Below are positions 7,938 through 21,825 of a stretch of DNA of 64,000 nucleotides, in pieces. The first letter of the stretch is position 1. Each line of letters opens with the position of its first letter. The notes under the pieces were generated by a model that saw only the letters and a program-made list of their open reading frames with translations, searched no databases and was not told the origin of the DNA. This DNA is from Streptomyces europaeiscabiei (GTDB lineage Bacteria > Actinomycetota > Actinomycetes > Streptomycetales > Streptomycetaceae): assembly GCF_036346855.1 (NCBI RefSeq), contig NZ_CP107841.1, forward strand, positions 8,188,001-8,252,000. The letters run 5' to 3'. The position numbers and the translations under genes were made by a program.

Positions 7938-9389
7938 CTAGTCCAGCGCGCCGTCGACGTCCGACAGCTTCACCGCGTAGAGCACGCGCTCCGGGATGGG
8001 GTCGGTGAGCGTCCACACCTCGCCGGTCTCCGGTGAGTAGGACAGGGAGGCGGTGTGCCGTCCCCAGCAGGCGTACGAGCGGAGGTCGGACTTCTGGTCG
8101 GCCTTGTCCGGCGCGCACCTGGCGGCCTCGGAGCCGTCCTCGTCCTGCCGCCAGAGCGTGCCGTGCCGGTCGGACTCCTCGGCGGCCTGGTCGACGTACC
8201 AGTTCCCCTTGTGGGCGAGGACCCCCCGGACACCGGTGGCCCCCGTCTCGTACGCCTCGGTGGCGACGGCGGCGCTCTCGCGGCCGGTGGTGGTGAGCAG
8301 GCCGGTGCGGTCGGCGGTGATGTCGAGGGCGTAGCGCCAGACGCGGGCGGGTTCATCGCGGCCGGGCCGGAACCGCTCGTTCGCGACGACCGTGGGTGGT
8401 GTCGACGTCCGGTCGAGGGAGAGCGAGCCGAAGCAGGGCACCGAGTCGTTGTCGCGCGCGTCGCAGCCGCGGCCCGCCGGTGGACTGTAGGCGGCGACAG
8501 CGGGCAGCGCGTACCGGTAGTGGTGGGCCGACCAGCCGTCGCCCACCCTGCCGATCGCGTCGCTGTCGGTCACGTCGGCGCGGAGGAAGCGGGCCAGGTC
8601 GAACACGTACAGGGAGTCGTCCCGCTGTCCGCGGCTCTGCGGGCCCCGCGCGGTGACGATCAGCTTGTCCTCGTACCAGGCCATGCCGCCGAGCCGGGAA
8701 CGCAGGCCCTCGAAGCCCTGTCCGCCGGTGGTCGGCACGACCAGCAGGACCCATCGGTACCTGAGGTTCGCGGGGTCACTGGCGTCGACGAAGGCGACCC
8801 GGGCGAGCCCTTCGTCGTCGACGGCGCCGACGTCGGTGCCGTCCGCACCGGTATTACCTGCGCCCGTGTGGTCCGCACCCGTGGTGCCGGCCTTCGTCGA
8901 GTCGGCGCCGGGCGTGCCGCTCCCGACGTCGCTGTGCGTCCAGCCGGCCGCGATGACCCGGTTGTTCCGGGACGTGGTGACCGAGCCGGGGACCCACCTG
9001 TCGTTGACCGCGTCGCCCGGCTCCCAGCAGTACGCCCGCGACGTCACCGGCTCGACGGGCAGATTGTCCTTCTCGGTGCTGAAACAGTCGCCCTCGTTGC
9101 GCATCGCGTGGTTCGCGCTGCGCAGTACCTCGTCGACGCCGACCCCGCCACCCATCTCGCGGGCCAGGGTGTTCAGCCCGGTGCTGTCGGTGAGGGTCTC
9201 CCTCAGCTGCAGCCTGCCCAGCTCGGCGGCCGAGGTGATGGAAGAGAGCGCGCCCGGTGTCTCACCGCCTGCCGCCTGCGATGTACTGATCAGCGTCGCC
9301 GCCGCCGTGAGGGCCAGCGCGGTCCCCGCCAGGGACGCGCGCAGCACACGTCCCCTTCTGCGTCGACGGTGCCTGCCGCGGTGCTGCAT
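7938..9389 (-). CDS. Secreted protein of unknown function
   Basis: The 483-residue product starts with an unusually basic n-region (HRGRHRRRRRGR), a hydrophobic core (SLAGTALALTAAATLIS) and a probable Ala-containing cleavage site, so it is likely exported. The mature part includes a degenerate low-complexity stretch of TGADxTxAG-like repeats and then strands rich in Trp and Tyr (VTARGP, LYVFDLARF, TLWRQDEDGSE), suggestive of a beta-propeller or similar. The ATG at 9389 follows GGGAGG. I do not recognise the family. It stands alone, flanked by a GNAT gene and a regulator on the same strand. Confidence 0.75.
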   Translation of the reverse strand: MQHRGRHRRRRRGRVLRASLAGTALALTAAATLISTSQAAGGETPGALSSITSAAELGRLQLRETLTDSTGLNTLAREMGGGVGVDEVLRSANHAMRNEGDCFSTEKDNLPVEPVTSRAYCWEPGDAVNDRWVPGSVTTSRNNRVIAAGWTHSDVGSGTPGADSTKAGTTGADHTGAGNTGADGTDVGAVDDEGLARVAFVDASDPANLRYRWVLLVVPTTGGQGFEGLRSRLGGMAWYEDKLIVTARGPQSRGQRDDSLYVFDLARFLRADVTDSDAIGRVGDGWSAHHYRYALPAVAAYSPPAGRGCDARDNDSVPCFGSLSLDRTSTPPTVVANERFRPGRDEPARVWRYALDITADRTGLLTTTGRESAAVATEAYETGATGVRGVLAHKGNWYVDQAAEESDRHGTLWRQDEDGSEAARCAPDKADQKSDLRSYACWGRHTASLSYSPETGEVWTLTDPIPERVLYAVKLSDVDGALD

Positions 9390-9582
9390 AAAACCTCCCG
9401 GGGACGGCCAACTGCCTACCAAGACCAAGATCTTGACGGAGAGGCAGGTGGGGCGGCCTGGCAGCGATGCTACGGCAGTGGGACACGTGTCACACCGAGG
9501 TCCCGAGAAATGCAGGGAGATCCCTCACCCCGAGGCCATGATCCGTTCACCGGGACGGGGGTCGAACGTGTTCGGCATGGGC

Positions 9583-10926
9583 TCAGGGGCCCGGCTCGGC
9601 CCTCTCGTGTCCCGAAGATCCTTCGCCCGGGAACCGGTCACCCGCAGTGGTGCCCCGTGCCCGTACCACCCCCGGCGCCACCGAGTGCGGGAACAGGTCC
9701 AACGGGGTTTCGGGGAGGAGGACTTCGACGTCGGCCCGTTCGGTGAACCGGTACGGGCGGTGGTCGAGGAAGGTACCGAGATAGCGGCGTACGCGGGACA
9801 TCTCGGCGCGGACGGTGACGGTGCGGGCGGGGTCGCCGAACATGTCGTCGGCGAGGGCGGAGGCGCTGCGCCCGCCGCGGTGGAGGGCGAGCAGGTACAG
9901 GAGTTCGGCGTGGCGGGGGGTGAGCTCATGGGTCCAGGAGCCCGCGCAGCCGACGACGGTGACGGTCCAGCGGCGTGGGTGGGAGACGTCGAGGGTGATG
10001 TGCGTGGCGGTCGGGGCGGGCGCGGCGTCCGCGGTGGGGCGTATCAGCCATCCGGCGGGCAGCGGGTCGACGGTGCACAGGCCGAGCGCGGGGAACCAGC
10101 AGCAGCCGGGGGACAGGGACTTGGGGAGGGCCACCCGGCTGGTGTACGGCATGCCGGTCACGGCGGCGGTCCAGCCGTCCGGGTCGACGGCGACCGCGCG
10201 GCCGCCGATACGGGCCAGGACCGGGGCCGCCACCGCGCGCAGCTGTTCGAGCGAGGTCAGGTGCAGGTCCCGTAGACGGGCCTCGGCGAGTTTGGCGACC
10301 GAGTCGACCAGGGCGAGGGTGGAGGGATGCAGGGTCTCCAGGGGGCCGCTGATGTCCACCGCGCCGAGCAGCCGGCCGTCGCGCGGGTCGGTGATGGGGG
10401 CGCCGGTGCAGGTCCAGGGGTGCAGGGCGCGGACGAAGTGCTCGGCGGAGAAGACCTGCACGGCGCGGCGGGAGACGAGGGGCGTACCGACGCCGTTCGT
10501 GCCGACCGTCTCCTCGCGCCAGTCCGCGCCGATCCCGAGGCCGTGCCCGTCGGCCTTGCGGAGCACGGCCGTACTGCCCTCGCGCCACAGCACCCGGGCG
10601 TCGGCGTCCGCGACCATCATGATGTGCTGCGTGGTGTCCGCGAGGGAGAGCAGCCCCTCGCGGAGCACCGGCAGGACGTGGCGGAGCCGTGAGGTCCGGC
10701 GGCGGCGCTCGACCTCGTCGCGGCCGAGGAGGTCGGACCGGAAGTCGTGGTCGGGGTCGATGCCGCTGTGCGCCATGCGGCCCCAGGACTCGCGGATCGC
10801 GGGGCGCGGGGCGGGTTTCGAGGGCCGGCCGTCGAGGACGGAGGCGCGTGCCTCGCCGAGAACCCGGGCCGCTCGGGCGGCGTCCGTGGCGGTGAGCCGC
10901 GCGACTTCCATCGGCGAGTGCGGCAC
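9583..10926 (-). CDS. GAF-domain transcriptional regulator
   Basis: The 447-residue product looks like a one-component regulator. A long N-terminal region (about 50-210) resembles the GAF sensor part of AcoR-like regulators: RESWGRMAHSGIDPDHDF, ETVGTNGVGTPL and FSAEHFVRALHPWTCTGAPI. There is no sigma-54 AAA+ domain. A C-terminal segment (LTPRHAELLYLLALHRGGRSA...) has the shape of a winged-helix DNA-binding domain. The GTG at 10926 has GGAGG five bases upstream and is preferred to the ATG five codons later. The same frame stays open far upstream into the next gene, which is incidental. It may control the adjacent dehydrogenase or a distant aldehyde/alcohol gene. Confidence 0.82.
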   Translation of the reverse strand: MPHSPMEVARLTATDAARAARVLGEARASVLDGRPSKPAPRPAIRESWGRMAHSGIDPDHDFRSDLLGRDEVERRRRTSRLRHVLPVLREGLLSLADTTQHIMMVADADARVLWREGSTAVLRKADGHGLGIGADWREETVGTNGVGTPLVSRRAVQVFSAEHFVRALHPWTCTGAPITDPRDGRLLGAVDISGPLETLHPSTLALVDSVAKLAEARLRDLHLTSLEQLRAVAAPVLARIGGRAVAVDPDGWTAAVTGMPYTSRVALPKSLSPGCCWFPALGLCTVDPLPAGWLIRPTADAAPAPTATHITLDVSHPRRWTVTVVGCAGSWTHELTPRHAELLYLLALHRGGRSASALADDMFGDPARTVTVRAEMSRVRRYLGTFLDHRPYRFTERADVEVLLPETPLDLFPHSVAPGVVRARGTTAGDRFPGEGSSGHERAEPGP

Positions 10927-11068
10927 TCGTTCCTCCCCGGCAGGCCGCTCGCTCCTCGGCCCCTGGTGGCCGTGGCAGCCGGGTCTGCGCGACGGCGTTG
11001 ACTGCGGGTTCACAGTCTGCCGCTCTTCGGCCACGGAGGGACACACTCCGGGCACAGAGCGCAGACGA

Positions 11069-11086
11069 GTTGCAACCCCCTGCAAC
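11069..11086. promoter_or_regulatory. Inverted repeat GTTGC-N8-GCAAC upstream of the GAF regulator
   Basis: GTTGC AACCCCCT GCAAC lies 143-160 bases before the GAF regulator start, in the short region between it and the upstream dehydrogenase. It is a plausible autoregulatory site, but 5-base arms can occur by chance in 320 bases. Confidence 0.3.
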
Positions 11087-11171
11087 CCTGGCGAACCGCC
11101 GCACGCTCCTTGAAACTTGTTCAACGTCGCCCTGTGCGGCGTGTGCGCTCCGCTCAGAAGGGGCCCGAGAA

Positions 11172-11209
11172 GCGGGGGTGGTGCCGTGTCGGCGCAGCAC
11201 CACCCCCGC
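11172..11209 (-). terminator. Hairpin terminator after the acyl-CoA dehydrogenase gene
   Basis: Perfect 13-base arms GCGGGGGTGGTGC (11172-11184) and GCACCACCCCCGC (11197-11209) with a 12-base loop lie about 40 bases past the stop of the minus-strand dehydrogenase. No T-run follows, as is usual in Streptomyces. It separates that gene from the GAF regulator. Confidence 0.75.
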
Positions 11210-11249
11210 GTCGGACCACCCGAAAGAGGGCACGTGGCCCGGGCGGAAC

Positions 11250-12893
11250 TCAGCTGACCGGACGCGCCCGTTCCACCACCGACGCCAGGTCCAGCGTGTG
11301 GGGCAGTGTGCCGAAGGCCGTGCCCCGGTCGCCGCCCAGCCGGGAGGCGCAGAACGCGTCGGCGACCGCCGGGGGCGCATACCGCACGAGGAGCGCCCCT
11401 TGCAGGACGAGGGCGAGTCGCTCCACGAGCCGGCGCGCGCGGGCCTCGATGCCGTCCAGATCGGCGAGTTCGGTCAGCAGGTCCTTGATCGCGCCGTCGA
11501 GCCGGTGGTCTCCGCCCCGGGCCCGGCCCACCTCCCGCAAGTAGGCGTCCAAAGCCTGCGGTTCGCGCCGCAGTGCGCGCAGCACGTCGAGTGCCTGCAC
11601 GTTTCCGGCCCCCTCCCAGAGGGAGTTGAGCGGGGACTCGCGCAACAGGCGGGGCATGCCGGACTCCTCGACATAACCGTTGCCGCCGAGGCACTCGGCG
11701 GCCTCCACCACGAGCGGGGCGCAGCGCTTGGTCACCCAGTACTTGGCGACCGGCACCGCCAGCCGCAAGAACGAGCGTTCGTTCTCGTTGCCCGCCTCCG
11801 CCGCGTCGTACGCCGAGGCCACACGCAGCGCGAGCGTCGTCGCCGCCTCCGACTCCAGCGCGAGATCCGCGAGGACGTTGCGCATCAGCGGCTTGTCGAT
11901 CAGCCGCCCGCCGAACGCCTCCCGGTACGAGCAGTGGTGCACCGCCTGCGCCACCGCCTGCCGCATCAGCGAGGCCGCGCCCAGCGCGCAGTCCAGCCGG
12001 GTGGCCGCCACCATCCCGATGATCGTGCGCACCCCCCGCCCCTCGTCCCCGACCCGGCGCGCCCACGTTCCGTCGAACTCGACCTCGGCGGAGGCGTTCG
12101 ACCGATTGCCCAGCTTCTCCTTCAGCCGCTGGATGCGGAACACGTTCCGCGACCCGTCGGCCAGCACCCGGGGCACCAGGAAACAGGTCAGTCCGCCCGG
12201 AGCCTGCGCCAGCACCAGGAACCCGTCCGACATCGGCGCCGAGCAGAACCACTTGTGGCCGGTCAGCTCGTACGTTCCGTCCTCGGCCAGCGGCCGCGCC
12301 GCGGTGGTGTTGGCGCGTACGTCGCTGCCCCCCTGCTTCTCGGTCATGCCCATCCCGAAGAGGGCGCCGGCCTTCTGGTCGGCGGGCCGCAGGTCCCAGT
12401 CGTAGAGCGTGGACGTCAGCCGAGGTTCCCACTCGGCGGCGAGCGCCGGGTCCGTGCGCAGGGCGGGTACCGCCGCGTGGGTCATGGACAGCGGGCAGCC
12501 GTTGCCGGCCTCGACCTGGGTCCAGACGACGAACGCGGCGGCTCGCCGCACATGCCCGCCGGGCCGTGTCCAGGCCGCCGTCAGCCCCGCCGAGACCCCC
12601 TTGCCGAGCAGTCGGTGCCACGACGGATGGAACTCCACCTCGTCCACCCGGTGCCCGTACCGGTCGTACGCCCGTAGCTTCGGCGGATTCTCGTTCGCCA
12701 GCCGCCCCCACTCCTGCACCTGCGCGGAGCCCGCCGCACGCCCGAACCCCGTCAGTTCGTCCCGGGCCTCGTCCAGCAGCTCCGGCGCCAGATGCCGGTC
12801 GACCGCCTCCGTCAGGACCTGGTCGGCGGCGAAGACGTCGTAGTCCACCAGGGGCGGAGCCTGATTGGTCACTTCATGGGTGCGGGCTGCCAT
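11250..12893 (-). CDS. AidB-like acyl-CoA dehydrogenase
   Basis: The 547-residue product is an FAD-dependent acyl-CoA dehydrogenase of the AidB type. It begins NQAPPLVDYDVFAADQVLTEAV, as AidB proteins do, and continues with GMGMTEKQGGSDVRANTT and GHKWFCSAPMSDGFLVLAQA (FAD/substrate segment). It has a LGGNGYVEESGMPRLLRESPLNSLWEGAGN motif and an extra C-terminal helical domain. At about 545 residues it fits AidB (about 540) rather than ordinary acyl-CoA dehydrogenases (about 380). AidB is linked to alkylation response in E. coli, but many actinobacterial members are simply annotated as dehydrogenases. The real substrate is unknown. It is monocistronic, with its own terminator. Confidence 0.88.
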   Translation of the reverse strand: MAARTHEVTNQAPPLVDYDVFAADQVLTEAVDRHLAPELLDEARDELTGFGRAAGSAQVQEWGRLANENPPKLRAYDRYGHRVDEVEFHPSWHRLLGKGVSAGLTAAWTRPGGHVRRAAAFVVWTQVEAGNGCPLSMTHAAVPALRTDPALAAEWEPRLTSTLYDWDLRPADQKAGALFGMGMTEKQGGSDVRANTTAARPLAEDGTYELTGHKWFCSAPMSDGFLVLAQAPGGLTCFLVPRVLADGSRNVFRIQRLKEKLGNRSNASAEVEFDGTWARRVGDEGRGVRTIIGMVAATRLDCALGAASLMRQAVAQAVHHCSYREAFGGRLIDKPLMRNVLADLALESEAATTLALRVASAYDAAEAGNENERSFLRLAVPVAKYWVTKRCAPLVVEAAECLGGNGYVEESGMPRLLRESPLNSLWEGAGNVQALDVLRALRREPQALDAYLREVGRARGGDHRLDGAIKDLLTELADLDGIEARARRLVERLALVLQGALLVRYAPPAVADAFCASRLGGDRGTAFGTLPHTLDLASVVERARPVS

Positions 12894-13037: not shown

Positions 13038-14048
13038 TCAGACGGGCGCCGCCAGCTCGCCCGTCCCCAGTTCCCCCGTTCCGAACTCCTCCTCCGGGTC
13101 CAGTACGGCCTCCCCGTACTGTTCCAGCGGCCAGCCCGGCCGGTAGACGGTGTCGAGATAGCGCTCCCCGAGGTCCGGGGAGATCGCCACCGCCGTGGTG
13201 TCGGGCGAGCCGTTGCGGGCCAGCCACTCGCCGGCGCCGCTGACGACCGTGCCGGTGGAGCCCCCGAAGAGGAAGCCGCGCCGGGCCATGCGGTGGCAGG
13301 CCCGTACGGTGTCGATCTCCTCCACCCGGACGACGTCGTCCACATAGGACGCGTCGAGCAGCGCCGGGGTCACGCTCGTGCCGAGCCCCGGGATCATCCG
13401 GCGGCCCGGCGCCCCGCCGAACGCGACCGAACCGACGCTGTCCACGGCGACGATCCGCACCCGGCGCCGCCGCTCCCAGAACCACTGGGCGCAGCCCATC
13501 AGCGTCCCCGAGGTGCCGACCCCCACGAACAGCACGTCCAGACGCGGGAACTGCCGGGCGATGGCGGGCGCGGTGGTGCGGTAGTGCGCCTGCCAGTTCG
13601 CCTGATTGGTGTACTGGTCGAGCCACACGTACCGCTGGTCGGTGGCGCACAGCGCACGGACGTACGCGATCCGGGCGCCGAGGAAACCCCCGTGCGGGTC
13701 CGGCTCGGAGATGACGTGGACCCGGCTGCCCAGCGCCTCGATCATGCGCCGGGTCTGTGGATTGCACCGGGAATCGGTCACGCACAGAAACCGGTAACCC
13801 CGGCTCGCCGCGATCATGCTCAGCGCGACGCCCAGATTGCCGGACGACGACTCGACGAGCGTCGAGCCCGGCCCGATACGTCCTTCCCGTTCGGCGGCCC
13901 GCACCATCTCGGACGCGGCCTTGACCTTGATCGAGCCGGCGAAGTTGAATCCCTCGCACTTCAGGAAGAGCCCGTGTCCGACGACCTGGCGCAGATCGAC
14001 GTACAGCTCCTCCTCGTTGAAGTCCGTGGGAACGGATATGACTGGCAC
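13038..14048 (-). CDS. sbnA: SbnA-like N-(2-amino-2-carboxyethyl)-L-glutamate synthase
   Basis: The product (336 residues) is a PLP enzyme of the cysteine synthase fold. Lys41 in GSIKVKAA is the likely Schiff-base lysine, with ESSSGNLG at 66-73 and the phosphate-binding loop GVGTSGTLMG. In staphyloferrin B biosynthesis SbnA joins O-phosphoserine and L-glutamate to give N-(2-amino-2-carboxyethyl)-L-glutamate, the precursor of L-2,3-diaminopropionate. Assignment to SbnA rather than CysK rests on the ESSSGNLG/SIKVKA motifs and above all on the adjoining SbnB gene. The GTG start follows AGGGGGG. It is the last gene of the five-gene NRPS set and lies 48 bases after sbnB. Confidence 0.85.
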   Translation of the reverse strand: MPVISVPTDFNEEELYVDLRQVVGHGLFLKCEGFNFAGSIKVKAASEMVRAAEREGRIGPGSTLVESSSGNLGVALSMIAASRGYRFLCVTDSRCNPQTRRMIEALGSRVHVISEPDPHGGFLGARIAYVRALCATDQRYVWLDQYTNQANWQAHYRTTAPAIARQFPRLDVLFVGVGTSGTLMGCAQWFWERRRRVRIVAVDSVGSVAFGGAPGRRMIPGLGTSVTPALLDASYVDDVVRVEEIDTVRACHRMARRGFLFGGSTGTVVSGAGEWLARNGSPDTTAVAISPDLGERYLDTVYRPGWPLEQYGEAVLDPEEEFGTGELGTGELAAPV

Positions 14049-14095
14049 TGCGGCCCCCCTGGTTGTGCAATGTCGTACTCGCTGTGCCCGGCCGC

Positions 14096-15139
14096 TCAGC
14101 CGTGGCGGCGCAGCTCGTGGAAGAAGTCGTCCACGACCCGTAGTCCGCCGGAGCGGACCACCTGCTCGTGAACATGACCGCCGACCGCGAGGTCGAGGAC
14201 CCCGAGGCCGAAGGGCGAGAAGATCACCGGCCGGTCCGCCGGCACGGTCGCCCGGCCGGTGAGGACGGAGTGGAGCGTCCCGTCGAGGAAGTCCCGTGCG
14301 CCGGTGAGCTGTTCGGTCAGGTGCGGTGAGGTGTCGGCCTTGAGGCAGTGCTCGACGTCGTCGACGAAGTTCGCCGACGCGAGCAGCACCTCGGGCGCGA
14401 GATCGCGCAGCGACACGTGCAGCACCAGCGGGTTGTGGGCGAACCACTTCGGTTCACGGATGTGCGGCTCGCCCGCGATCGTGGCGAGGACCACCAGGTC
14501 GCTCGCCCGGATCACGTCCTCGGCGCTGTCGTACATGCTCACCCGCCCGTCCGCGCCGGACCGCTCCAGGTACCCCCGGAACCCCGTCGCGCTGTCCGCG
14601 GACAGGTCGTGCACCCCCACCTCCTCGAACGCGAAGCCGGTCGCCGCGAGGAACGTGTGGATGTACCGGGCGATCAGGCCCGTGCCGAGGAAGCCGACCC
14701 GCGTCGGGCGCGGCGCCCCCCGGCGCGCGTCGCTCAGCCGGTCGGCCGCCAGCGCCGCCGACGCGGCCGTCCGGGTGGCGCTGATGATGGAGGCCTCCAG
14801 GCATGCGAACGGATAGCCGGTGGCGTGGTCGTTGAGGATCAGTACGGCGGAGGCGCGCGGCAGCCCGCTCGCCGTGTTCTCCGGGAAGCTGGAGACCCAT
14901 TTCAATCCGTCCACCTGGAACTTCCCGCCCAGTGAGGCGGGCAGCGCGATGATCCGCGAGGACGGGCGGTCGGGGAAGCGGAGGAAGTACGACGGCGGAT
15001 TGACCGTGTCGCCCGTGTCCCCGTCCCCGTGCAACAGGTAGGCGGACTCGACCAGTTCGACGATCTCCCGTTCCCGGCCCCGCAGGGCCTGCTGCACCTG
15101 GGCGCCGGAGATCACGGCGAAACCCGGAACCTCGGTCAT
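14096..15139 (-). CDS. sbnB: SbnB-like dehydrogenase, 2,3-diaminopropionate biosynthesis
   Basis: The 347-residue product belongs to the ornithine cyclodeaminase/mu-crystallin family. It has a Rossmann motif GTGLIARY at about 152-159 and the N-terminal PPSYFLRFPDRPSSRIIALPASLGG segment typical of SbnB. SbnB oxidatively hydrolyses the SbnA product with NAD, releasing L-2,3-diaminopropionate and 2-oxoglutarate. Its ATG overlaps the stop of the upstream oxygenase gene (ATGA), indicating coupled translation. The pairing of SbnA and SbnB next to an adenylation-domain gene strongly predicts a diaminopropionate-containing product. 2-Oxoglutarate, released here, is also the co-substrate of the coupled oxygenase. 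Confidence 0.88.
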   Translation of the reverse strand: MTEVPGFAVISGAQVQQALRGREREIVELVESAYLLHGDGDTGDTVNPPSYFLRFPDRPSSRIIALPASLGGKFQVDGLKWVSSFPENTASGLPRASAVLILNDHATGYPFACLEASIISATRTAASAALAADRLSDARRGAPRPTRVGFLGTGLIARYIHTFLAATGFAFEEVGVHDLSADSATGFRGYLERSGADGRVSMYDSAEDVIRASDLVVLATIAGEPHIREPKWFAHNPLVLHVSLRDLAPEVLLASANFVDDVEHCLKADTSPHLTEQLTGARDFLDGTLHSVLTGRATVPADRPVIFSPFGLGVLDLAVGGHVHEQVVRSGGLRVVDDFFHELRRHG

Positions 15140-16221
15140 CGGAAGCTCACCTCGTCCTTCGAGCCGGAGTCGTGCGTGTCGGAGTGCTGTGTGCCCGGCC
15201 GCTGTGTGTCGCAGGGCCGTGTGCCGGAGTGCTGCGTGCCGCAGTCGGTCGGCCGTACCGGGTCCGCCAGGCCCACCAGCACCTCGCGCGGTCCCTCGAA
15301 GGGCTCACGGCTGTGGGCGCAGCGGATGTTGTCGACGAGAAGCAGGTCACCGGGCCGCCACGGTTCGCGGACGGTGTGCGCCTCGTAGACCTCGTTGAGC
15401 GTCTCGACGACATCGGCGCCGATCGGATCGCCGTCGCCGTAGCGGGTGTTGAAGGGCAGCCCGTCGGCCCCGTACATGTCCACCAGGTACTCGCGCACCT
15501 CGGCGTCCATGGTCCATTCGTTGAGGAACGCGATCTGGTTGAACCAGCAGCGGCGGCCGGTCACCGGATGCCGCAGGACGGCGGCGCGCCGCTGCCGGGT
15601 GTGCAGGGACCCGTCGGGCTGCCAGGCGAACTCGATGGAGTGGGCCCGGCAGTAGGCCTCGACGACGTGCCGGTCGTCGGTGCCGAACGCCTCGGCGATC
15701 GACGCGCCGATCTCGTCGTTGTACGAGCGGGTGAGCAGCCAGCCGTCCCGCTCGAACCGCTTGGTCAGCTCCGTCGGCAGCGCCGCCAGTACGGCCTCCG
15801 CGTCGGCGACGCCGGTCGCCCCGCCCCGCCCGGCGGCTTCCAGGCAGGCGAACAGCATCAGGCCGGGGAACTCCCGTGTGTAGCTCAACTCGTGGTGCAT
15901 GCACATCGGTTGGGTCGACGGCCAGGCCGTCGAGGAGTACACCCCGTCCGGGTACGTCCGCCGGGGCGCGAAGGCCTCCTTCTCGATCATCAGTGTGTCG
16001 GTCAACCCGCGGAAGACCGCGCCGACCTCGGCCGCGTCCCGCAGCCCGAGACCGCGTACGAGGACCGAGCCGTGCTCGGCGACGGCGGCACGCAGGGCGT
16101 CCCGCCGCTCGGCCGCCCACAGGGGGGCGGGTTCGGCGGGGGAGACGGCGAGGAGCGGCGGCCTGCCGGGCGATGTCTCGATGCCCGGCGGGAGAAGGGG
16201 AGTCGAGTTCGACGGGGGCAT
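15136..16221 (-). CDS. Fe(II)/2-oxoglutarate oxygenase, TauD/clavaminate synthase-like
   Basis: The 361-residue product is a TauD/TfdA-superfamily oxygenase. Proposed iron ligands are His109 and Glu111 (MCMHHELSY) and distal His303 (DNIRCAHSREPF), with a downstream Arg for 2-oxoglutarate. The His-x-Glu rather than His-x-Asp pattern is that of clavaminate synthase and VioC-type amino acid hydroxylases. The likely job is beta-hydroxylation of an amino acid, free or carrier-bound. The C-terminal 35 residues are a low-complexity Gly-Thr-Gln-His-Ser-rich tail. The ATG follows AAAGGA by seven bases, and the stop overlaps the sbnB start. Substrate assignment is inference. Confidence 0.85.
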   Translation of the reverse strand: MPPSNSTPLLPPGIETSPGRPPLLAVSPAEPAPLWAAERRDALRAAVAEHGSVLVRGLGLRDAAEVGAVFRGLTDTLMIEKEAFAPRRTYPDGVYSSTAWPSTQPMCMHHELSYTREFPGLMLFACLEAAGRGGATGVADAEAVLAALPTELTKRFERDGWLLTRSYNDEIGASIAEAFGTDDRHVVEAYCRAHSIEFAWQPDGSLHTRQRRAAVLRHPVTGRRCWFNQIAFLNEWTMDAEVREYLVDMYGADGLPFNTRYGDGDPIGADVVETLNEVYEAHTVREPWRPGDLLLVDNIRCAHSREPFEGPREVLVGLADPVRPTDCGTQHSGTRPCDTQRPGTQHSDTHDSGSKDEVSFR

Positions 16222-16262
16222 CGCCCCGTCCTTTCGACGGCGCCCGGCGGATCGGCGGCGGT

Positions 16263-18743
16263 TCAGGAAGCCCACGACGGCCTCCCCACGGTGCCGGCGG
16301 TGTGCGCGACGGCCCTCGTGTCGATCAGCCCGGCCAGCTCGGACAGGACCGGGTGCCCGGTCACGTCCTTGGGGGACACCGCCCGCTCCAGGGCGATCGC
16401 GAGCTTCACCGCCGACAGCGAGGTGCCACCCCGGTCGAAGAAGTGGTCGCGCCGGCCGATGCCGGCCCGCGGCACACCGAGCACCTCGGCCCACGCGGCA
16501 GCCAGCCGCTCCTCGGTCGGCGTCGCCGGCGGTTCGCCCGACGTGCCCTCCATCGCGTCGAGTTCCTCGGCCAGCGCCGTCAGCGTCCGCCGGTCGATCT
16601 TGCCGTTGCCGGTCAGCGGCAGGCTCTCGCGCCAGTGGAACACCGACGGCACCATGTACGCCGGCAGTGAGTCCGCCAGCCGGCCCCGCAGATCCTCGGC
16701 CGCGAGCGGCCGGCCGGAGTGGAAGGCCACCAGCCGCGCGCCCCTGGCGACGACCACCGCGCCGTCCCGCACCCCCGCCACCTTGAGCAGTGCGTTCTCC
16801 ACCTCGCCGATCTCGATACGGAAGCCGCGCACCTTGACCTGGGTGTCCCGGCGGCCGAGGAACTCCAGCTTGGCGTCGGGCCGCCAGCGCCCGTGGTCCC
16901 CGCTGCGGTAGAGCCGCTCGCCGGGCCGGTACGGGTCGGTGGTGAAGGCCCGTGCGGTGCGTTCGGGGTCGTTGACGTAGCCCCGCCCGACACACACCCC
17001 GGAGAAGACGATCTCCCCCGGAGCGCCCAGCGGCACGAGGGAGAGGTGTTCGTCGACGACGTACACACGGACGTTGCGGACCGGACGGCCCAGGGGCACC
17101 CGGCCCCCCTCCGGAGCCCGGTCCATCACCTCGTGGTTGGTGTCGTCCGAGGTCTCCGTCAGCCCGTAGGCGTTGACCAGGGGTATCCCCGGCTCGCTTG
17201 CGAACCAGCGCTCCGCCAGCTCCTGCTTCAACGCTTCCCCGGTGACCGACACCCGGCGCAGCGCGGGCAGTTCCCGGGGGTGCTGCTCCAGATGCGCGAG
17301 AACCGCTTCGAGGTACGACGGCACGACCTGGACCACGTTCGCCCGGCCGTCGGCGATCCGGTCGACGAACCGTCCGACGTCCAGGATCACCTCCTGCTCC
17401 ACCAGGAGGGTCCGACCACCGGCCAGGGGGCCGGCCAGCAGCTGCCACAGGGAGATGTCGAAGCACTGGGGCGCGGTCTGCGCGACGACGTCCCCCTCGC
17501 CGATGCCGAGGTCGTCGAGCTTGGCGTGGAGATGGTTGAGCATCCCGGCGTGCTCGCACATCGCGCCCTTGGGCTCGCCCGTGGAACCGGACGTGAAGTA
17601 GATGTACGCGAGCCGGTCCGGCGTGATCTCCATACCGAGGTCGGAGTCCGGGTGGGCCTCGTCGTACGCGTCCTCGACGAGCAGCCGCTGCACCCCGGGC
17701 AGCGCGGACAGGGCCCGGTCCAGTGCGGCCGTGCTGCCCCGCTCGGTGAGCACCAGCTCGCAGCCGGCGCGGGCGAGCGTGGTGGCGACGCGTTCGGCGG
17801 GGAAGTGCGGCTCGACGGGCAGATAGGCGCCGCCCGCCTTGAACACCGCGAGGACGGCCGCCATCCAGTCGAGGTTCCGCTCGGTCACCACCGCGACGAC
17901 GCCCTCGTGACCGAGTCCCCGGACCAGCAGTGCCCGACTGAGCTGGTTGGCACGGGAGTTGAGTTCGCGGTACGTCCAGCGCCGGTCGCCGTGGACGGCC
18001 GCGACCGCGTCCGGGTGCGCCACGACGCGCTGCTCGAACAGCTCGTGCACCCGGCGGTCGGGAAGTTCGCGGTGCGGTCCTGCCAACCCGTCGAGCTGGA
18101 ACCGGAGTTCGTCGTCCGACACCAGACTTCGTCGTCCGTGCTCGGCGTCCGGCTCGGCGGCCAGCAGGGTGAGGGCGGTGACGTGGTACCCGGCGATCCG
18201 GGCCGCGCCGTCCTCGTCGAGCACGTCCGTGCGGTACCGCAGCCGCAGCGCCGGACCGTCGTCGCGGTGCACCAGTCCCACCCGCAGGACCACGTCCTCG
18301 TCAAGGTCGCCGTCGCCGCCGCTCGTGTCGAGCACCGTCTCGAACGGCGGCTCGCTGAGGCCGAGTTCGTGCCGCAGGGCGTCCACCGGGTAGCCGGCGT
18401 GCGTCAGCAGCTCCGTGGTGACCCGGTGGGTGTGCCCCAGCAGCGCGCGCCAGGTGTCGCCGGGCGCGGTGGTGAGCCGGCACGGCAGTGTGCGGCCGTC
18501 CTCCAGCCAGCCGGTGGTGACCTCGCCCTCGCCCGACAGCGCGGCGAGTACCTTCGCATGGGCGGCGAGCAGCGCGGCCGTTCCGTCCGAAGCGGTCAAC
18601 AACCGCTCTGGTAGAGCCACTTCGTAGGCGGCGACCCCCTTCGCCGGATCGGCGCTCCACCGTGGGACCACGGTCCGCCCTCCGGCGGTGAGCACCTCGT
18701 GCCAGTACTTCCGGGCAGCGTCGCCCGACTCCGACAGATCCAT
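16263..18743 (-). CDS. NRPS: condensation-domain remnant, adenylation and carrier domains
   Basis: The 826-residue product activates an amino acid as the adenylate and loads it on its own carrier domain. Residues 1-215 look like the C-terminal half of a condensation domain with no HHxxxDG motif. The adenylation domain follows (about 225-705), with FTSGSTGEPKG near 383-393, NAYGLTE near 524-530, YRSGDHGRW and GNGKIDRR. A carrier domain has Ser775 in GGTSLSAV for phosphopantetheine. Aligning by eye to GrsA gives the pocket residues D429, I430, W433, Q472, S499, T501, A525, D533, D534 and the motif Lys. Two adjacent acids would suit a basic side chain such as diaminopropionate. No thioesterase or epimerase is present. 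It starts 14 bases after the upstream membrane gene ends. Confidence 0.9.
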   Translation of the reverse strand: MDLSESGDAARKYWHEVLTAGGRTVVPRWSADPAKGVAAYEVALPERLLTASDGTAALLAAHAKVLAALSGEGEVTTGWLEDGRTLPCRLTTAPGDTWRALLGHTHRVTTELLTHAGYPVDALRHELGLSEPPFETVLDTSGGDGDLDEDVVLRVGLVHRDDGPALRLRYRTDVLDEDGAARIAGYHVTALTLLAAEPDAEHGRRSLVSDDELRFQLDGLAGPHRELPDRRVHELFEQRVVAHPDAVAAVHGDRRWTYRELNSRANQLSRALLVRGLGHEGVVAVVTERNLDWMAAVLAVFKAGGAYLPVEPHFPAERVATTLARAGCELVLTERGSTAALDRALSALPGVQRLLVEDAYDEAHPDSDLGMEITPDRLAYIYFTSGSTGEPKGAMCEHAGMLNHLHAKLDDLGIGEGDVVAQTAPQCFDISLWQLLAGPLAGGRTLLVEQEVILDVGRFVDRIADGRANVVQVVPSYLEAVLAHLEQHPRELPALRRVSVTGEALKQELAERWFASEPGIPLVNAYGLTETSDDTNHEVMDRAPEGGRVPLGRPVRNVRVYVVDEHLSLVPLGAPGEIVFSGVCVGRGYVNDPERTARAFTTDPYRPGERLYRSGDHGRWRPDAKLEFLGRRDTQVKVRGFRIEIGEVENALLKVAGVRDGAVVVARGARLVAFHSGRPLAAEDLRGRLADSLPAYMVPSVFHWRESLPLTGNGKIDRRTLTALAEELDAMEGTSGEPPATPTEERLAAAWAEVLGVPRAGIGRRDHFFDRGGTSLSAVKLAIALERAVSPKDVTGHPVLSELAGLIDTRAVAHTAGTVGRPSWAS

Positions 18744-18757
18744 CTCTTTCCCCCGAT

Positions 18758-21268
18758 TCACCGTGATCCGGTGGTCTCCGTCGCCGGGTTCCCGCCCCAG
18801 CGCGCGTGCGGCGGCACCTCCTCGCCCTTCATCAGGAAGGAGTCGGCCGCGAGCGCGGCCCCCTCGCCCAGCACCACGCCGTAGTGGACGAACGCCTGGA
18901 CCTCCAGCGTGCTGCCGGCGCCGATCGTGACGTGGTCGGACTTGAAGGTGCCGTCCTCCTGCGAATGTGCCTGGATCTTGCTGCCGGCCGCGAGCGTGCA
19001 GTCGTCCCCGACGGCCGTCAGCGTCCGCTCGGTGATGAACACCCCGTCGTCGAAGACCCGGCGCCCGATCCGCACCCCCAGCAGCCGCCAGACGAGGCTC
19101 TTGTACGGCGTGCCGTTGAGTACCTCCAGGTGTTTGTCCGGCAGTTTCCACAGCCGCTCCTGCCGCCAGAAGACGGGGTCGTAGATGGAGCACAACCGTG
19201 GCCGCAGCGGCCGGAAGCGGGTCAGGGACCGTTCCACGAGCGTGTAGTAGAGGACGGTGAACACCAGCGCAGCCAGGGGCAGCGCGGCGAGCGCGAGCAG
19301 TCCCGTGATGCCGTCCCCGCGCCCGTACAGGTCGAAGGCCGTGAAGCCGAGCAGGGTGAGCGCGAAGGTGTGCAGCCAGCGCAGGAACAGGAACAGTCCC
19401 ATCGAGCGCAGGTTGAAGCGGTTCTTCGCGGCGAGCCGCCGGTGCAGTTCCTCGCCTTCGCGCAGATGGTCGAAGCGGCTGTCGCGCTCCACCGAGCGGG
19501 GGATCTCGAAGGGCGGCGAGCCGAGCAGCCCGACCCCTTCGCGGATCTCGCCGTCGAGCGGGACCAGGACCTTGGTGGCCAGCAGGCAGTTCTCGCCGGT
19601 GCGGCCGCCGACCGGGTAGGCGATTTGGTTGCCCAGGAAGTTGTGCCCGCCGATCGCCGTCCGGGACACCCGGAACGACGTGGCGGAGTAGTCCGCGTTC
19701 ATGACCGACAGCCCGTCCGCGACCATCGTGCCGCTGCCGACCTTCACCAGGTACGGCGTCTCGTGCTGCACCGCGGTGCCGAAGTTGGACCCGGTCTGGT
19801 CGACGCGCGAGAGGTCGTACCCGAGGGCCTTGAGGCAGGGGACGATGTACGAACTGTCGCCGCACAGCCAGGTGAAGAACCCGAGGTTGGTCAGGCGGGC
19901 GATCGCGCGGTGCACCGAGTAGTGGAAGCCGTACAGCGGATAGGTGCGGTCCGGCTTCACCAGCGGGCGCAGCAGCCGCGGTACGACGAACACGACGACG
20001 GCCCCCACGACGATCGAGCCGCCGAACAGCGCGAGCGACAGGGCCATCGCCTCGACGTGGAAGCGCGCCGTGGAAAGGTGCTGCGACGCCGGGTCGAGCA
20101 GGGTGTCCAGCTCGGGCGCGGCGGTGAGCAGCAGATAGGCGCCGCCGACGGTCAGCGGTATGTACAGCAGCAGGGTCTGGAGCAGGGCGGCGAGCCCGTA
20201 TCCGGCCCGCCGGAGTGTGCCGCACGGGAGCGGGGCGACCCGGATGTGGTCCACGTCCGTGCGTCGGGCCGGTGAGCCGTGCCAGCTCTCCGCGGCGGGG
20301 ACCGACTCGTCGGCGCGCAGGGCGGAGGAGTGACCGAGCTGGGAACCGTCGCCGATGGCGGTGCCGATGTCGAGGACGGTGTGCTCGCCGACGAAGACGT
20401 CCCGGCCGAGGGTCACGGGGCCGGTGCGGATGCGTCCGCCGCGTGCCCGGTAGCAGAGGAAGGAGGAGTCCTTGCGGATGACCGTGCCCGCACCGATCGT
20501 CAGCAGGTCGGTGCAGACCGGGACGGTGCGGCTGAGGATTGTGACGCCCGGTCCGATGCGGGCGCCGAGGGCCCGCAGGTACAGCACGTACAGCGGGTTG
20601 CCGACGAACAGGATCATCGGGCTGGTGTGCAGCAGCGACTTGACGATCCAGAACCGCAGATACGCCGGGCCCCACACGGGGAACTCCACGGGCTGCCACC
20701 GCCCGATCAGCAGCCATTTGGCGGCGACCGGCAGGGTGCACAGGGCGAGGAGGGCGAGCGCGCCGAAGACGGCCGACCGCAGGTAGATCTCGGCGATCCC
20801 CGAGGCTTCCGCCACCCACTCGTACCCCTGTACGTATCCAGAGGTGGCGAGCAGGCAGTAGCCGACGAAGAGGAGCAACTGCAGCGCTCCGCACAGGGTG
20901 TAGCGGAACGTGTTGCCCGGGGGCACGGGCCCGGCGGGCACCGGCGGGGCGGCCGGCGACGCCGGCGCCTCGGTCAGCGCGGCGGCGAGGCTGCGGACCG
21001 TCGGGTGGCCGTAGACGTCCCGAATGGACACCGACGGCAGATCGGGGTGCTTCCTGACGCGGGCGCAGAAATGTGCCATCGTCAGCGAGTTGGCACCGAG
21101 GTCGTCGAAGAAATTGCTTTCTATGGGCACATGTTCGACTCGTGCGACGCCGGCCAGAACTTCGGCCAGAAGTCGCTCGATGGCGGTGTACGATTCCGCC
21201 GCGTCCGGTTCGGCCGCCTGGACCTCGCCCGGATTTTCCACCACGTGTCGTGGCGCTGGCAATGTCAT
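18758..21268 (-). CDS. Carrier domain fused to a Pls-like polytopic membrane protein with three beta-helix domains
   Basis: The 836-residue product starts with a phosphopantetheine carrier domain (about 25-100, Ser61 in DDLGANSLT). Pairs of hydrophobic helices then alternate with three hexapeptide-repeat left-handed beta-helix domains (GPGVTILSRTVPVCTD..., VGSGTMVADGLSVMNADYS..., VGDDCTLAAGSKIQAHS...). This is the layout of the 'NRPS terminal domain of unknown function' and of the C1-C2-C3 tandem domains of epsilon-poly-L-lysine synthetase (Pls), which form isopeptide bonds at the membrane. In Pls the adenylation domain is on the same chain; here it is encoded by the next gene. It is the first gene of the operon, with GGAG eight bases upstream. 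A role as peptide ligase, possibly with export, is inferred from Pls. Confidence 0.88.
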   Translation of the reverse strand: MTLPAPRHVVENPGEVQAAEPDAAESYTAIERLLAEVLAGVARVEHVPIESNFFDDLGANSLTMAHFCARVRKHPDLPSVSIRDVYGHPTVRSLAAALTEAPASPAAPPVPAGPVPPGNTFRYTLCGALQLLLFVGYCLLATSGYVQGYEWVAEASGIAEIYLRSAVFGALALLALCTLPVAAKWLLIGRWQPVEFPVWGPAYLRFWIVKSLLHTSPMILFVGNPLYVLYLRALGARIGPGVTILSRTVPVCTDLLTIGAGTVIRKDSSFLCYRARGGRIRTGPVTLGRDVFVGEHTVLDIGTAIGDGSQLGHSSALRADESVPAAESWHGSPARRTDVDHIRVAPLPCGTLRRAGYGLAALLQTLLLYIPLTVGGAYLLLTAAPELDTLLDPASQHLSTARFHVEAMALSLALFGGSIVVGAVVVFVVPRLLRPLVKPDRTYPLYGFHYSVHRAIARLTNLGFFTWLCGDSSYIVPCLKALGYDLSRVDQTGSNFGTAVQHETPYLVKVGSGTMVADGLSVMNADYSATSFRVSRTAIGGHNFLGNQIAYPVGGRTGENCLLATKVLVPLDGEIREGVGLLGSPPFEIPRSVERDSRFDHLREGEELHRRLAAKNRFNLRSMGLFLFLRWLHTFALTLLGFTAFDLYGRGDGITGLLALAALPLAALVFTVLYYTLVERSLTRFRPLRPRLCSIYDPVFWRQERLWKLPDKHLEVLNGTPYKSLVWRLLGVRIGRRVFDDGVFITERTLTAVGDDCTLAAGSKIQAHSQEDGTFKSDHVTIGAGSTLEVQAFVHYGVVLGEGAALAADSFLMKGEEVPPHARWGGNPATETTGSR

Positions 21269-21825
21269 TGAATTTCTCCGCGACAGGTATTGCGATGGAA
21301 GGCGCCCGGGGGTGAACGGGACGGCGCGCGGAATGACAGTAGGAGAGGGGATGGAAAGCGGTGACGCGTGTGGCGGAATGGATCAGGCCTGTTCGGAGCC
21401 TGGACGAATCCCTCGGGGTGTGCTGTGCCGGCACCTTGGACGGGTGGGTTCAGCGGAATGCAATCCGGATTCTTTCGGCACATTCGGGAACGGGTCAAGG
21501 GAGGTTGGGCGATTGACGCTTTCCCGCCCCTTTGTCGATCCCCTCCGGTCTGTCGGACCCGGGCCCGTACGCCGCCTCAGCGGGGAACTTTCCAAAGAGA
21601 CGGTACAAACACACCCGAACGTTCCGCTTCCAGCCACTCAATGATTCGGCCAGCAAGTTCATGACAGAAAAGGCGATTCGGAATCACCTTTGGTTTCTGC
21701 TGGGTTTCCCTTTGTTTGCTGCCCCGTGACGCGACCGGAGGGAAGCGTGCGCCGCACGCGGACCATGTCGCGGCCGACGGCACCGGGAGGTGAGGGCGGC
21801 ACGCGCAGGCGGATACCTTTAGGGC
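21269..21825. other. Divergent intergenic region of the NRPS operon and yihY-family gene
   Basis: About 560 bases contain no convincing gene. The region must hold the promoter of the leftward NRPS operon. I see no TTAGGTTAGG-type iron box, which argues weakly against a siderophore. The part near 21600-21720 is less GC-rich than its surroundings. At the right end TACCTT sits seven bases before the yihY-family GTG, suggesting a leaderless transcript. Confidence 0.5.

What the first reader, a model, noticed from the sequence alone, without database searches (positions are those of the whole stretch)
13038..21268. Split Pls-like nonribosomal system with its own diaminopropionate pathway
Five co-directional genes encode SbnA- and SbnB-like enzymes, an Fe/2OG oxygenase, an adenylation-carrier protein, and a carrier domain fused to a membrane protein with six helices and three beta-helix domains. 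The last two together contain the parts of epsilon-poly-lysine synthetase, but the adenylation domain is on a separate chain and there are two carrier domains. There is no thioesterase, epimerase or dedicated exporter. A (hydroxylated) diaminopropionate homopolymer or short isopeptide-linked product is the simplest prediction. Pls-like poly-diaminopropionate synthetases are known, but I do not know of this split, oxygenase-containing form.
Basis: partly seen in the sequence, partly recalled or inferred. Interest (0 to 1): 0.88.

Follow-up and report, generated by a model that had tools for sequence, protein, structure and literature searches.

The report
Split diaminopropionate polymer synthetase with oxygenase
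Five neighbouring genes in a potato-scab-type Streptomyces look like a machine that makes the small diamino acid diaminopropionate, oxidises it on a carrier and joins it up at the membrane; the set is common in Streptomyces but its product is unknown.

Summary
Five minus-strand genes (13038-21268) encode SbnA, SbnB, an Fe/2OG oxygenase, an adenylation-carrier (A-T) protein and a carrier fused to the Pls/PosA terminal domain (T-Pls). Of 53 split T-Pls loci fetched from Streptomyces genomes, 49 have the same A-T neighbour and 45 all five genes; at least 46 of 150 sampled species carry T-Pls with this A-T. "Split Pls" is half right. The membrane part is Pls-like; its nearest one-chain relatives have the Phe/Glu pocket reported for poly-diaminopropionate/-butyrate synthetases. 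The A domain is not Pls-like: its pocket, DIWQSTADDK in 71 of 71 loci, lacks the Glu reported for such synthetases, and the protein begins with half a condensation domain. The A-T and oxygenase pair also occurs without T-Pls in 17 other loci. 23 of 49 relatives keep a thioesterase that the window lacks. One genome fuses T-Pls, A-T and oxygenase into one 2327-aa frame. Most likely the A-T protein loads diaminopropionate, the oxygenase modifies it on the carrier, and T-Pls condenses it into a short isopeptide oligomer. Substrate, oxidation and product are untested. New variant of a known kind.

The parts
18758..21268 (-). T-Pls: N-terminal carrier (about 20975-21172) plus Pls/PosA terminal domain (about 18782-20896), 836 aa
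   Evidence: TIGR02353 771.5 bits, cut-off 423.1; PP-binding 34.8 bits; model with six long helices in three pairs
16263..18743 (-). A-T protein: C-terminal half of a condensation domain (about 18060-18743), adenylation domain (about 16599-18038), carrier (about 16323-16511); start ATG read
   Evidence: AMP-binding 266 bits, PP-binding 39 bits; weak Condensation match to the C-terminal half only; pocket DIWQSTADDK
15136..16221 (-). TauD-type Fe(II)/2-oxoglutarate oxygenase (ATG read)
14096..15139 (-). SbnB-type diaminopropionate synthesis dehydrogenase; its start overlaps the stop of the oxygenase gene
   Evidence: TIGR03944 396 bits, cut-off 326.9
13038..14048 (-). SbnA-type PLP enzyme (GTG start read)
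   Evidence: TIGR03945 391.8 bits, cut-off 349.95
21269..21825 (.). intergenic region to the divergent BrkB/YihY-like gene, with well-conserved blocks and no iron-box match
   Evidence: alignment of 9 sequences, mean column identity 87%; 0 matches to the iron-box pattern in the window

Best explanation
A two-chain, oxygenase-containing relative of poly-diaminopropionate synthetase. SbnA and SbnB make L-2,3-diaminopropionate (Dap) from O-phosphoserine and glutamate (or serine and ornithine, as reported for S. albulus). The stand-alone A-T protein activates Dap and loads its own carrier. The TauD-type oxygenase oxidises carrier-bound Dap (a hydroxylation, or a desaturation). The unit is then moved to, or separately loaded onto, the second carrier at the N-terminus of T-Pls, whose membrane domain joins it by isopeptide bonds to a growing chain and may help it leave the cell. 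Where a thioesterase is fused to the A-T protein (not in the window) it clears or releases the unit. Shown: the genes, domains, conservation, pocket residues and natural fusions. Inferred: Dap as substrate, on-carrier oxidation, loading between chains, oligomer as product.
For: Five genes kept together in 45 of 53 split T-Pls loci from Streptomyces genomes; 3 of the 4 A-containing exceptions are cut by a contig end. No sixth gene family recurs widely: among the 40 largest families those shared by BrkB-flanked and other loci are in at most 5 of 71 loci, which suggests that the five are a sufficient unit. Natural fusions: one 2327-aa frame holds T-Pls, A-T and oxygenase (L079), and A-T runs into the oxygenase in 4 of 86 loci (L062, L079, L092, L105). 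The pocket code is DIWQSTADDK in 71 of 71 T-Pls-linked A domains (the two sets of loci partly repeat species): acids at positions 8 and 9, with the Trp at position 3 of serine pockets (recalled), suit a short diamino acid. In 17 further loci without T-Pls the oxygenase lies next to an A domain of this kind; the pocket is the same (13) or nearly the same (3) in the 16 that could be read; 7 of the 17 also have SbnA and SbnB, 8 another kinase and PLP-enzyme set. Of 57 positions invariant in ten one-chain synthetases, 42 are kept in at least 95% of 72 split proteins. The nearest one-chain relatives (L080, L088, about 50% identical) have codes beginning D-F-E; the PosA paper says that PDAP/PDAB synthetases have Phe at position 2 and that the Glu is conserved in all (PMC10522769). 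Dap polymerisation by a one-chain member is reported for S. albulus PDAPs (PMC4668381).
Against: No product is known. The A domain has never been assayed to my knowledge, and no paper in the library holds its code. Free beta-hydroxy-Dap would be an unstable hemiaminal (chemistry, recalled), so either the beta-amine is acylated first or the oxidation is of another kind. Four of 53 T-Pls loci lack this A domain (L064, L066, L070, L072), and one operon lacks the oxygenase and SbnB (L063), so the oxygenase is not indispensable. A thioesterase on 23 of 49 A-T proteins would be odd for a long polymer. A D-F-E pocket is not confined to the nearest kin: L091 has one too (DFEYFGTVTK) at 28% identity to the window. 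The oxygenase family also lies next to A domains with other codes (L108-L110). Only 47 of 122 positions invariant in eight more distant one-chain proteins are kept in the split ones. Two carriers and no complete condensation domain leave the transfer step unexplained.
Confidence: 0.5

Rival explanations
1. The operon makes a small molecule: the A-T protein and oxygenase make a modified Dap, and T-Pls forms only one or two amide bonds (for example to free Dap), giving a dipeptide-like antibiotic or signal.
For: 23 of 49 A-T proteins have a thioesterase, usual for short or monomeric products. In 20 other fetched loci the oxygenase family lies beside A domains without T-Pls, where it would supply single residues. 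S. albulus poly-Dap is itself short, 0.5-1.5 kDa (PMC4668381).
Against: The terminal domain keeps most of the conserved core of the one-chain polymerases (42 of 57 positions), and the characterised members named in the papers read make polymers or oligomers.
Confidence: 0.3
2. T-Pls passes the activated Dap unit to a cell-envelope acceptor, as the D-alanylation (Dlt) system does with D-Ala; the operon decorates the surface with positive charge.
For: Separate A-T and membrane-bound carrier protein; no exporter; wide distribution in the genus. The A domain gives a DltA match (255 bits, below the 476-bit cut-off), as NRPS A domains commonly do.
Against: The membrane protein is of the Pls/PosA family, not the MBOAT family of DltB (recalled). 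The oxygenase and the thioesterase have no place in such a scheme.
Confidence: 0.08
3. Unmodified poly-Dap is the product, and the oxygenase acts only on a few units or on something else.
For: PDAP is known from S. albulus (PMC4668381); L063 keeps T-Pls, A-T and SbnA without the oxygenase.
Against: The oxygenase is present in 47 of the 49 A-containing split loci; of the other two L075 is cut by the contig end and L063 truly lacks it. It shares a frame with A-T in 4 of 86 loci, and it follows the same kind of A domain outside this operon.
Confidence: 0.12

Closest known systems
Poly-L-diaminopropionate synthetase (PDAPs) of Streptomyces albulus PD-1 (PMC4668381; abstract and Results sections read)
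   Same: Dap from SbnA/SbnB-like enzymes; carrier followed by the same kind of terminal domain with three tandem parts; no classical condensation or thioesterase domain
   Different: One chain with its own A domain; the Dap genes are reported not to lie close to pdaps; no oxygenase is mentioned in the parts read
Delta-poly-L-ornithine synthetase PosA and epsilon-poly-L-lysine synthetase (PMC10522769; abstract, sections 8, 10, 11, 13, 14 and passages read)
   Same: Terminal domain with six helices and three beta-helix parts; carrier before it
   Different: A domain in the same chain with Asp and Glu at positions 1 and 3 of the code; here Asp and Trp
NRPS side pathways in which an A-T protein, an oxygenase and a thioesterase make a modified amino acid (for example beta-hydroxyhistidine in nikkomycin; recalled, no call)
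   Same: A-T protein with an oxygenase, and a thioesterase in 23 of 49 relatives
   Different: Here the cassette is tied to a Pls-type membrane domain with its own carrier
At3g21360 clavaminate synthase-like protein (1y0z)
   Different: Plant protein; no link to NRPS known to me

Membership tests
Pls/PosA cationic homopolyamino acid synthetases | Terminal domain TIGR02353 over its cut-off | tested here: met
   771.5 bits against 423.1; 42 of 57 positions invariant in ten one-chain members kept in at least 95% of 72 split proteins
Pls/PosA cationic homopolyamino acid synthetases | A domain, carrier and terminal domain in one chain | tested here: not met
   Two chains in the window. One relative, L079, is a single frame but in the order T-Pls, A-T, oxygenase
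Pls/PosA cationic homopolyamino acid synthetases | Glu at position 3 of the A-domain code, which binds the side-chain amine (PMC10522769) | tested here: not met
   Trp at this position in 71 of 71 T-Pls-linked A domains; Glu in 10 of 10 one-chain proteins read the same way
Pls/PosA cationic homopolyamino acid synthetases | Six membrane helices in three pairs around three beta-helix parts | tested here: inconclusive
   Six long helices in three pairs; the second beta-helix stretch has low confidence
Pls/PosA cationic homopolyamino acid synthetases | Product is an isopeptide-linked homopolymer | not testable with these tools
   Needs chemistry
SbnA/SbnB diaminopropionate pathway | Both family models over their cut-offs, adjacent genes | tested here: met
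   TIGR03945 and TIGR03944
Fe(II)/2-oxoglutarate oxygenases (TauD fold) | His-x-Glu/Asp...His metal triad and the Arg for 2-oxoglutarate (motif recalled) | tested here: met
   His112, Glu114, His306, Arg315 in 34 of 34; fold match to 1y0z
Canonical NRPS elongation module | Complete condensation domain with HHxxxDG (motif recalled) | tested here: not met
   Only the C-terminal half matches Pfam Condensation (E 0.043 in the window, 0.00022 in L024, 3.4e-06 in L010, all under the cut-off, profile from about 189 on); no HHxxxDG seen in the 230 residues

The most novel reading that the evidence does not exclude
A new class of bacterial isopeptide polymer: oligo-diaminopropionate in which every unit is oxidised while bound to a carrier, made by a Pls-type polymerase that has lost its own A domain and is fed from outside by an NRPS-derived A-T and oxygenase cassette; it is common in Streptomyces and switched on in a scab pathogen near potato tubers.
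Probability: 0.35. Interest if true: 0.8.

Novelty: new variant of a known kind. Interest (0 to 1): 0.62.

Why it matters
The Pls/PosA polymerases described in the papers that I read carry their own A domain. Here evolution seems to have separated the polymerising part and paired it with an interchangeable loading-and-oxidising cassette, which makes the open question of how the terminal domain forms and releases chains testable with a separate soluble A-T protein and membrane protein. The operon's core is in at least 46 of 150 sampled Streptomyces species, yet its product is not known to me. In S. scabies the SbnB protein C9YUJ1, which I take to be this operon's, is among the proteins reported as overproduced with potato microtubers (PMC11479980, passages), so the product may matter in a crop disease.

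Tried and rejected

Thioesterase counts use a tblastn threshold of 80 bits (23 of 49 loci); L061 and L071 have weaker pieces and were counted as without; Pfam confirmed the domain in L010 only. The 22 loci of genome contigs (20 with all five genes, 7 with thioesterase; in L007 and L009 the contig ends within the operon) partly repeat the same species as the G genomes, judged by equal contig lengths, so the two sets must not be added. Split matches in G145 and G142 were not fetched. Of the 94 oxygenase matches listed I fetched 20 places. In the protein search only 120 of 4860 matches were shown; those 120 list a carrier and no AMP-binding domain.
Full report
What is there. The window lies in a 10.95-Mb Streptomyces genome; its nearest named relative by this locus is S. 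europaeiscabiei (96-97% identity for the two large proteins). Five genes lie on the minus strand, from T-Pls (21268-18758) through the A-T protein (18743-16263), the TauD-type oxygenase (16221-15136) and SbnB (15139-14096) to SbnA (14048-13038). Family models place them firmly. The neighbours, an AidB-like acyl-CoA dehydrogenase and a BrkB/YihY-like membrane protein, lie beside the operon in 21 and 24 of 71 compared loci, but in the others the flanks differ, so they are not part of it.

How widespread. In 150 Streptomyces species genomes TIGR02353 rings over its cut-off in 81. The matches fall into one-chain forms (open frames of about 1300-1400 aa and more) and split forms (about 810-1150 aa). 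I fetched 53 loci around split forms, L079 counted among them: 49 have the same A domain next to T-Pls, 45 have all five genes, 47 of the 49 have the oxygenase, 23 have a thioesterase at the end of the A-T protein. Of the four loci with A but not all five genes, L039, L057 and L075 are cut by a contig end; L063 lacks oxygenase and SbnB and is followed by acetate kinase and pyruvate kinase. L064, L066, L070 and L072 have T-Pls without this A domain; the four genomes they come from each also hold a locus with it. The 49 loci come from 45 genomes; with the window's own that is at least 46 of 150. In 22 loci of the named collection (all Streptomyces), 20 have all five genes. Over 296 genomes of the phylum, T-Pls at E up to 1e-60 is found in 5: three of the same genus and two others, whose pieces also carry this A domain (pockets DIWQSTADDK and DIWQSTTDDK). 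In five loci SbnA is divergent, upstream of T-Pls (L043, L045, L060, L063, L067).

The A domain is not a Pls A domain. Its pocket reads DIWQSTADDK in 71 of 71 T-Pls-linked loci, while ten one-chain synthetases read DAESIGTVVK (seven, lysine-like) or begin D-F-E (L080, L088, L091). The PosA paper reports Asp at position 1 and Glu at position 3 as conserved in all these synthetases, with Ala (lysine), Met (ornithine) or Phe (PDAP/PDAB) at position 2 (its supplementary table was not seen). The alignment that gave my codes reproduces this pattern for the one-chain proteins, which is a check of the positions. The first 230 residues of the A-T protein match only the C-terminal half of the condensation domain, weakly in the window and more clearly in L010 and L024; in some relatives this half is largely gone (L047, L048, L052, L056). 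So the A-T protein probably descends from an ordinary NRPS module.

A cassette that travels. A search with the oxygenase in 200 genomes of the family found it or a relative in 74 (E up to 1e-60). I fetched 20 of the less similar places. In 17 of them (L092-L107, L111; 48-62% identity) the oxygenase lies next to an A domain of the same kind and no T-Pls was found within the stretch; the pocket could be read in 16: DIWQSTADDK in 13, DIWQATCDDK in 3. Seven of the 17 also carry SbnA and SbnB (in L107 in broken frames); L095 has a remnant of SbnB and L093 neither; eight show another set, which in L098 is a GHMP kinase, an ATP-grasp ligase, an argininosuccinate-lyase-like protein and a PLP enzyme of the SbnA/cysteine-synthase kind, below the SbnA cut-off. 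For the other seven I go by the listing, where each shows the same kinase-like stretch; L103-L105 differ in the rest. I read that set as another route to a 2,3-diamino acid (recalled from pacidamycin-type pathways). That the same pocket seems to go with two different supply routes for 2,3-diamino acids is the best evidence for the substrate. In the last three places (L108-L110, 45-47%) the oxygenase lies in a large NRPS cluster; the stand-alone A domain beside it has a glutamine-like code (my reading).

Fusions. In L079 T-Pls, A-T and oxygenase share one uninterrupted frame of 2327 aa; in L062, L092 and L105 A-T runs into the oxygenase without a stop (4 of 86 loci for A-T with oxygenase, 1 of 73 for T-Pls with A-T). 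A sequencing error, or a second start inside the frame (L062 has a Met just before the oxygenase), cannot be excluded, but the four cases point the same way: these enzymes work together.

The polymerase part is kept. Of 57 positions invariant in ten one-chain proteins, 42 are kept in at least 95% of 72 split ones. Positions conserved on both sides include Arg205, Arg431, Asp518, Asn547, Glu704, Gln766, His768, Asp772 and Glu816. Against eight one-chain proteins without the two nearest relatives the figure is lower, 47 of 122. In the tree the split proteins form one group with 84% SH-aLRT, next to the one-chain L080 and L088 and far from the lysine-type proteins. L080 and L088 have the Phe/Glu pocket reported for PDAP/PDAB; so has L091, which is distant (28% identity). 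The plain reading is that the polymerase of a poly-Dap or poly-Dab synthetase lost its A domain and was paired with the cassette; the direction of this change is inferred.

A link to the plant. S. scabiei 87.22 (L014) has a single SbnB match, in this operon. A proteomics paper (passages read) reports C9YUJ1, an SbnB homologue close to an sbnA homologue and an NRPS gene, among S. scabies proteins overproduced with potato microtubers; six proteins of the secondary-metabolism group were at least twofold higher with both cultivars. That C9YUJ1 is this operon's SbnB is my inference from the single copy. I did not see the supplementary table.

Verdict. The find is real, widespread and, as far as eight searches of the open literature show, undescribed. 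It works like a Pls/PosA synthetase in its second half, but as a whole it fails two features of that family that I tested (one chain; Glu in the pocket). The most likely product is a short isopeptide oligomer of oxidised diaminopropionate; a dipeptide-like small molecule is the main rival.

Noticed in passing
G000:C1:2167551-2169581 (L076), outside the window: The window's genome also holds an ordinary one-chain Pls-type synthetase with a lysine-like pocket (DAESIGTVVK), so two different TIGR02353 systems coexist.
   Followed up: partly
L072:38-6144: A split T-Pls followed by an oxygenase, an AMP-binding protein with another code and a separate carrier instead of the usual A-T protein: a third kind of partner.
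   Followed up: partly
L064, L066, L070: Split T-Pls genes with no A domain found in the fetched stretch, in genomes that each also carry a locus of the usual kind (L034, L039, L035); they may be fed from the other locus.
   Followed up: partly
L097-L100, L103-L105, L111: The same A-T and oxygenase pair with a GHMP kinase, ATP-grasp ligase, lyase and PLP enzyme (tested in L098), and in L098 a methylaspartate-mutase-like protein below its cut-off: apparently another set of peptide clusters with another diamino acid route.
   Followed up: partly
window 21269-21825: The region upstream of T-Pls has well-conserved blocks in nine aligned sequences; a possible regulatory site, not identified.
   Followed up: no
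window 7938-9428 and 9926-11380: Two long open frames downstream without any Pfam or NCBIfam match; one or both may be the wrong frame.
   Followed up: no
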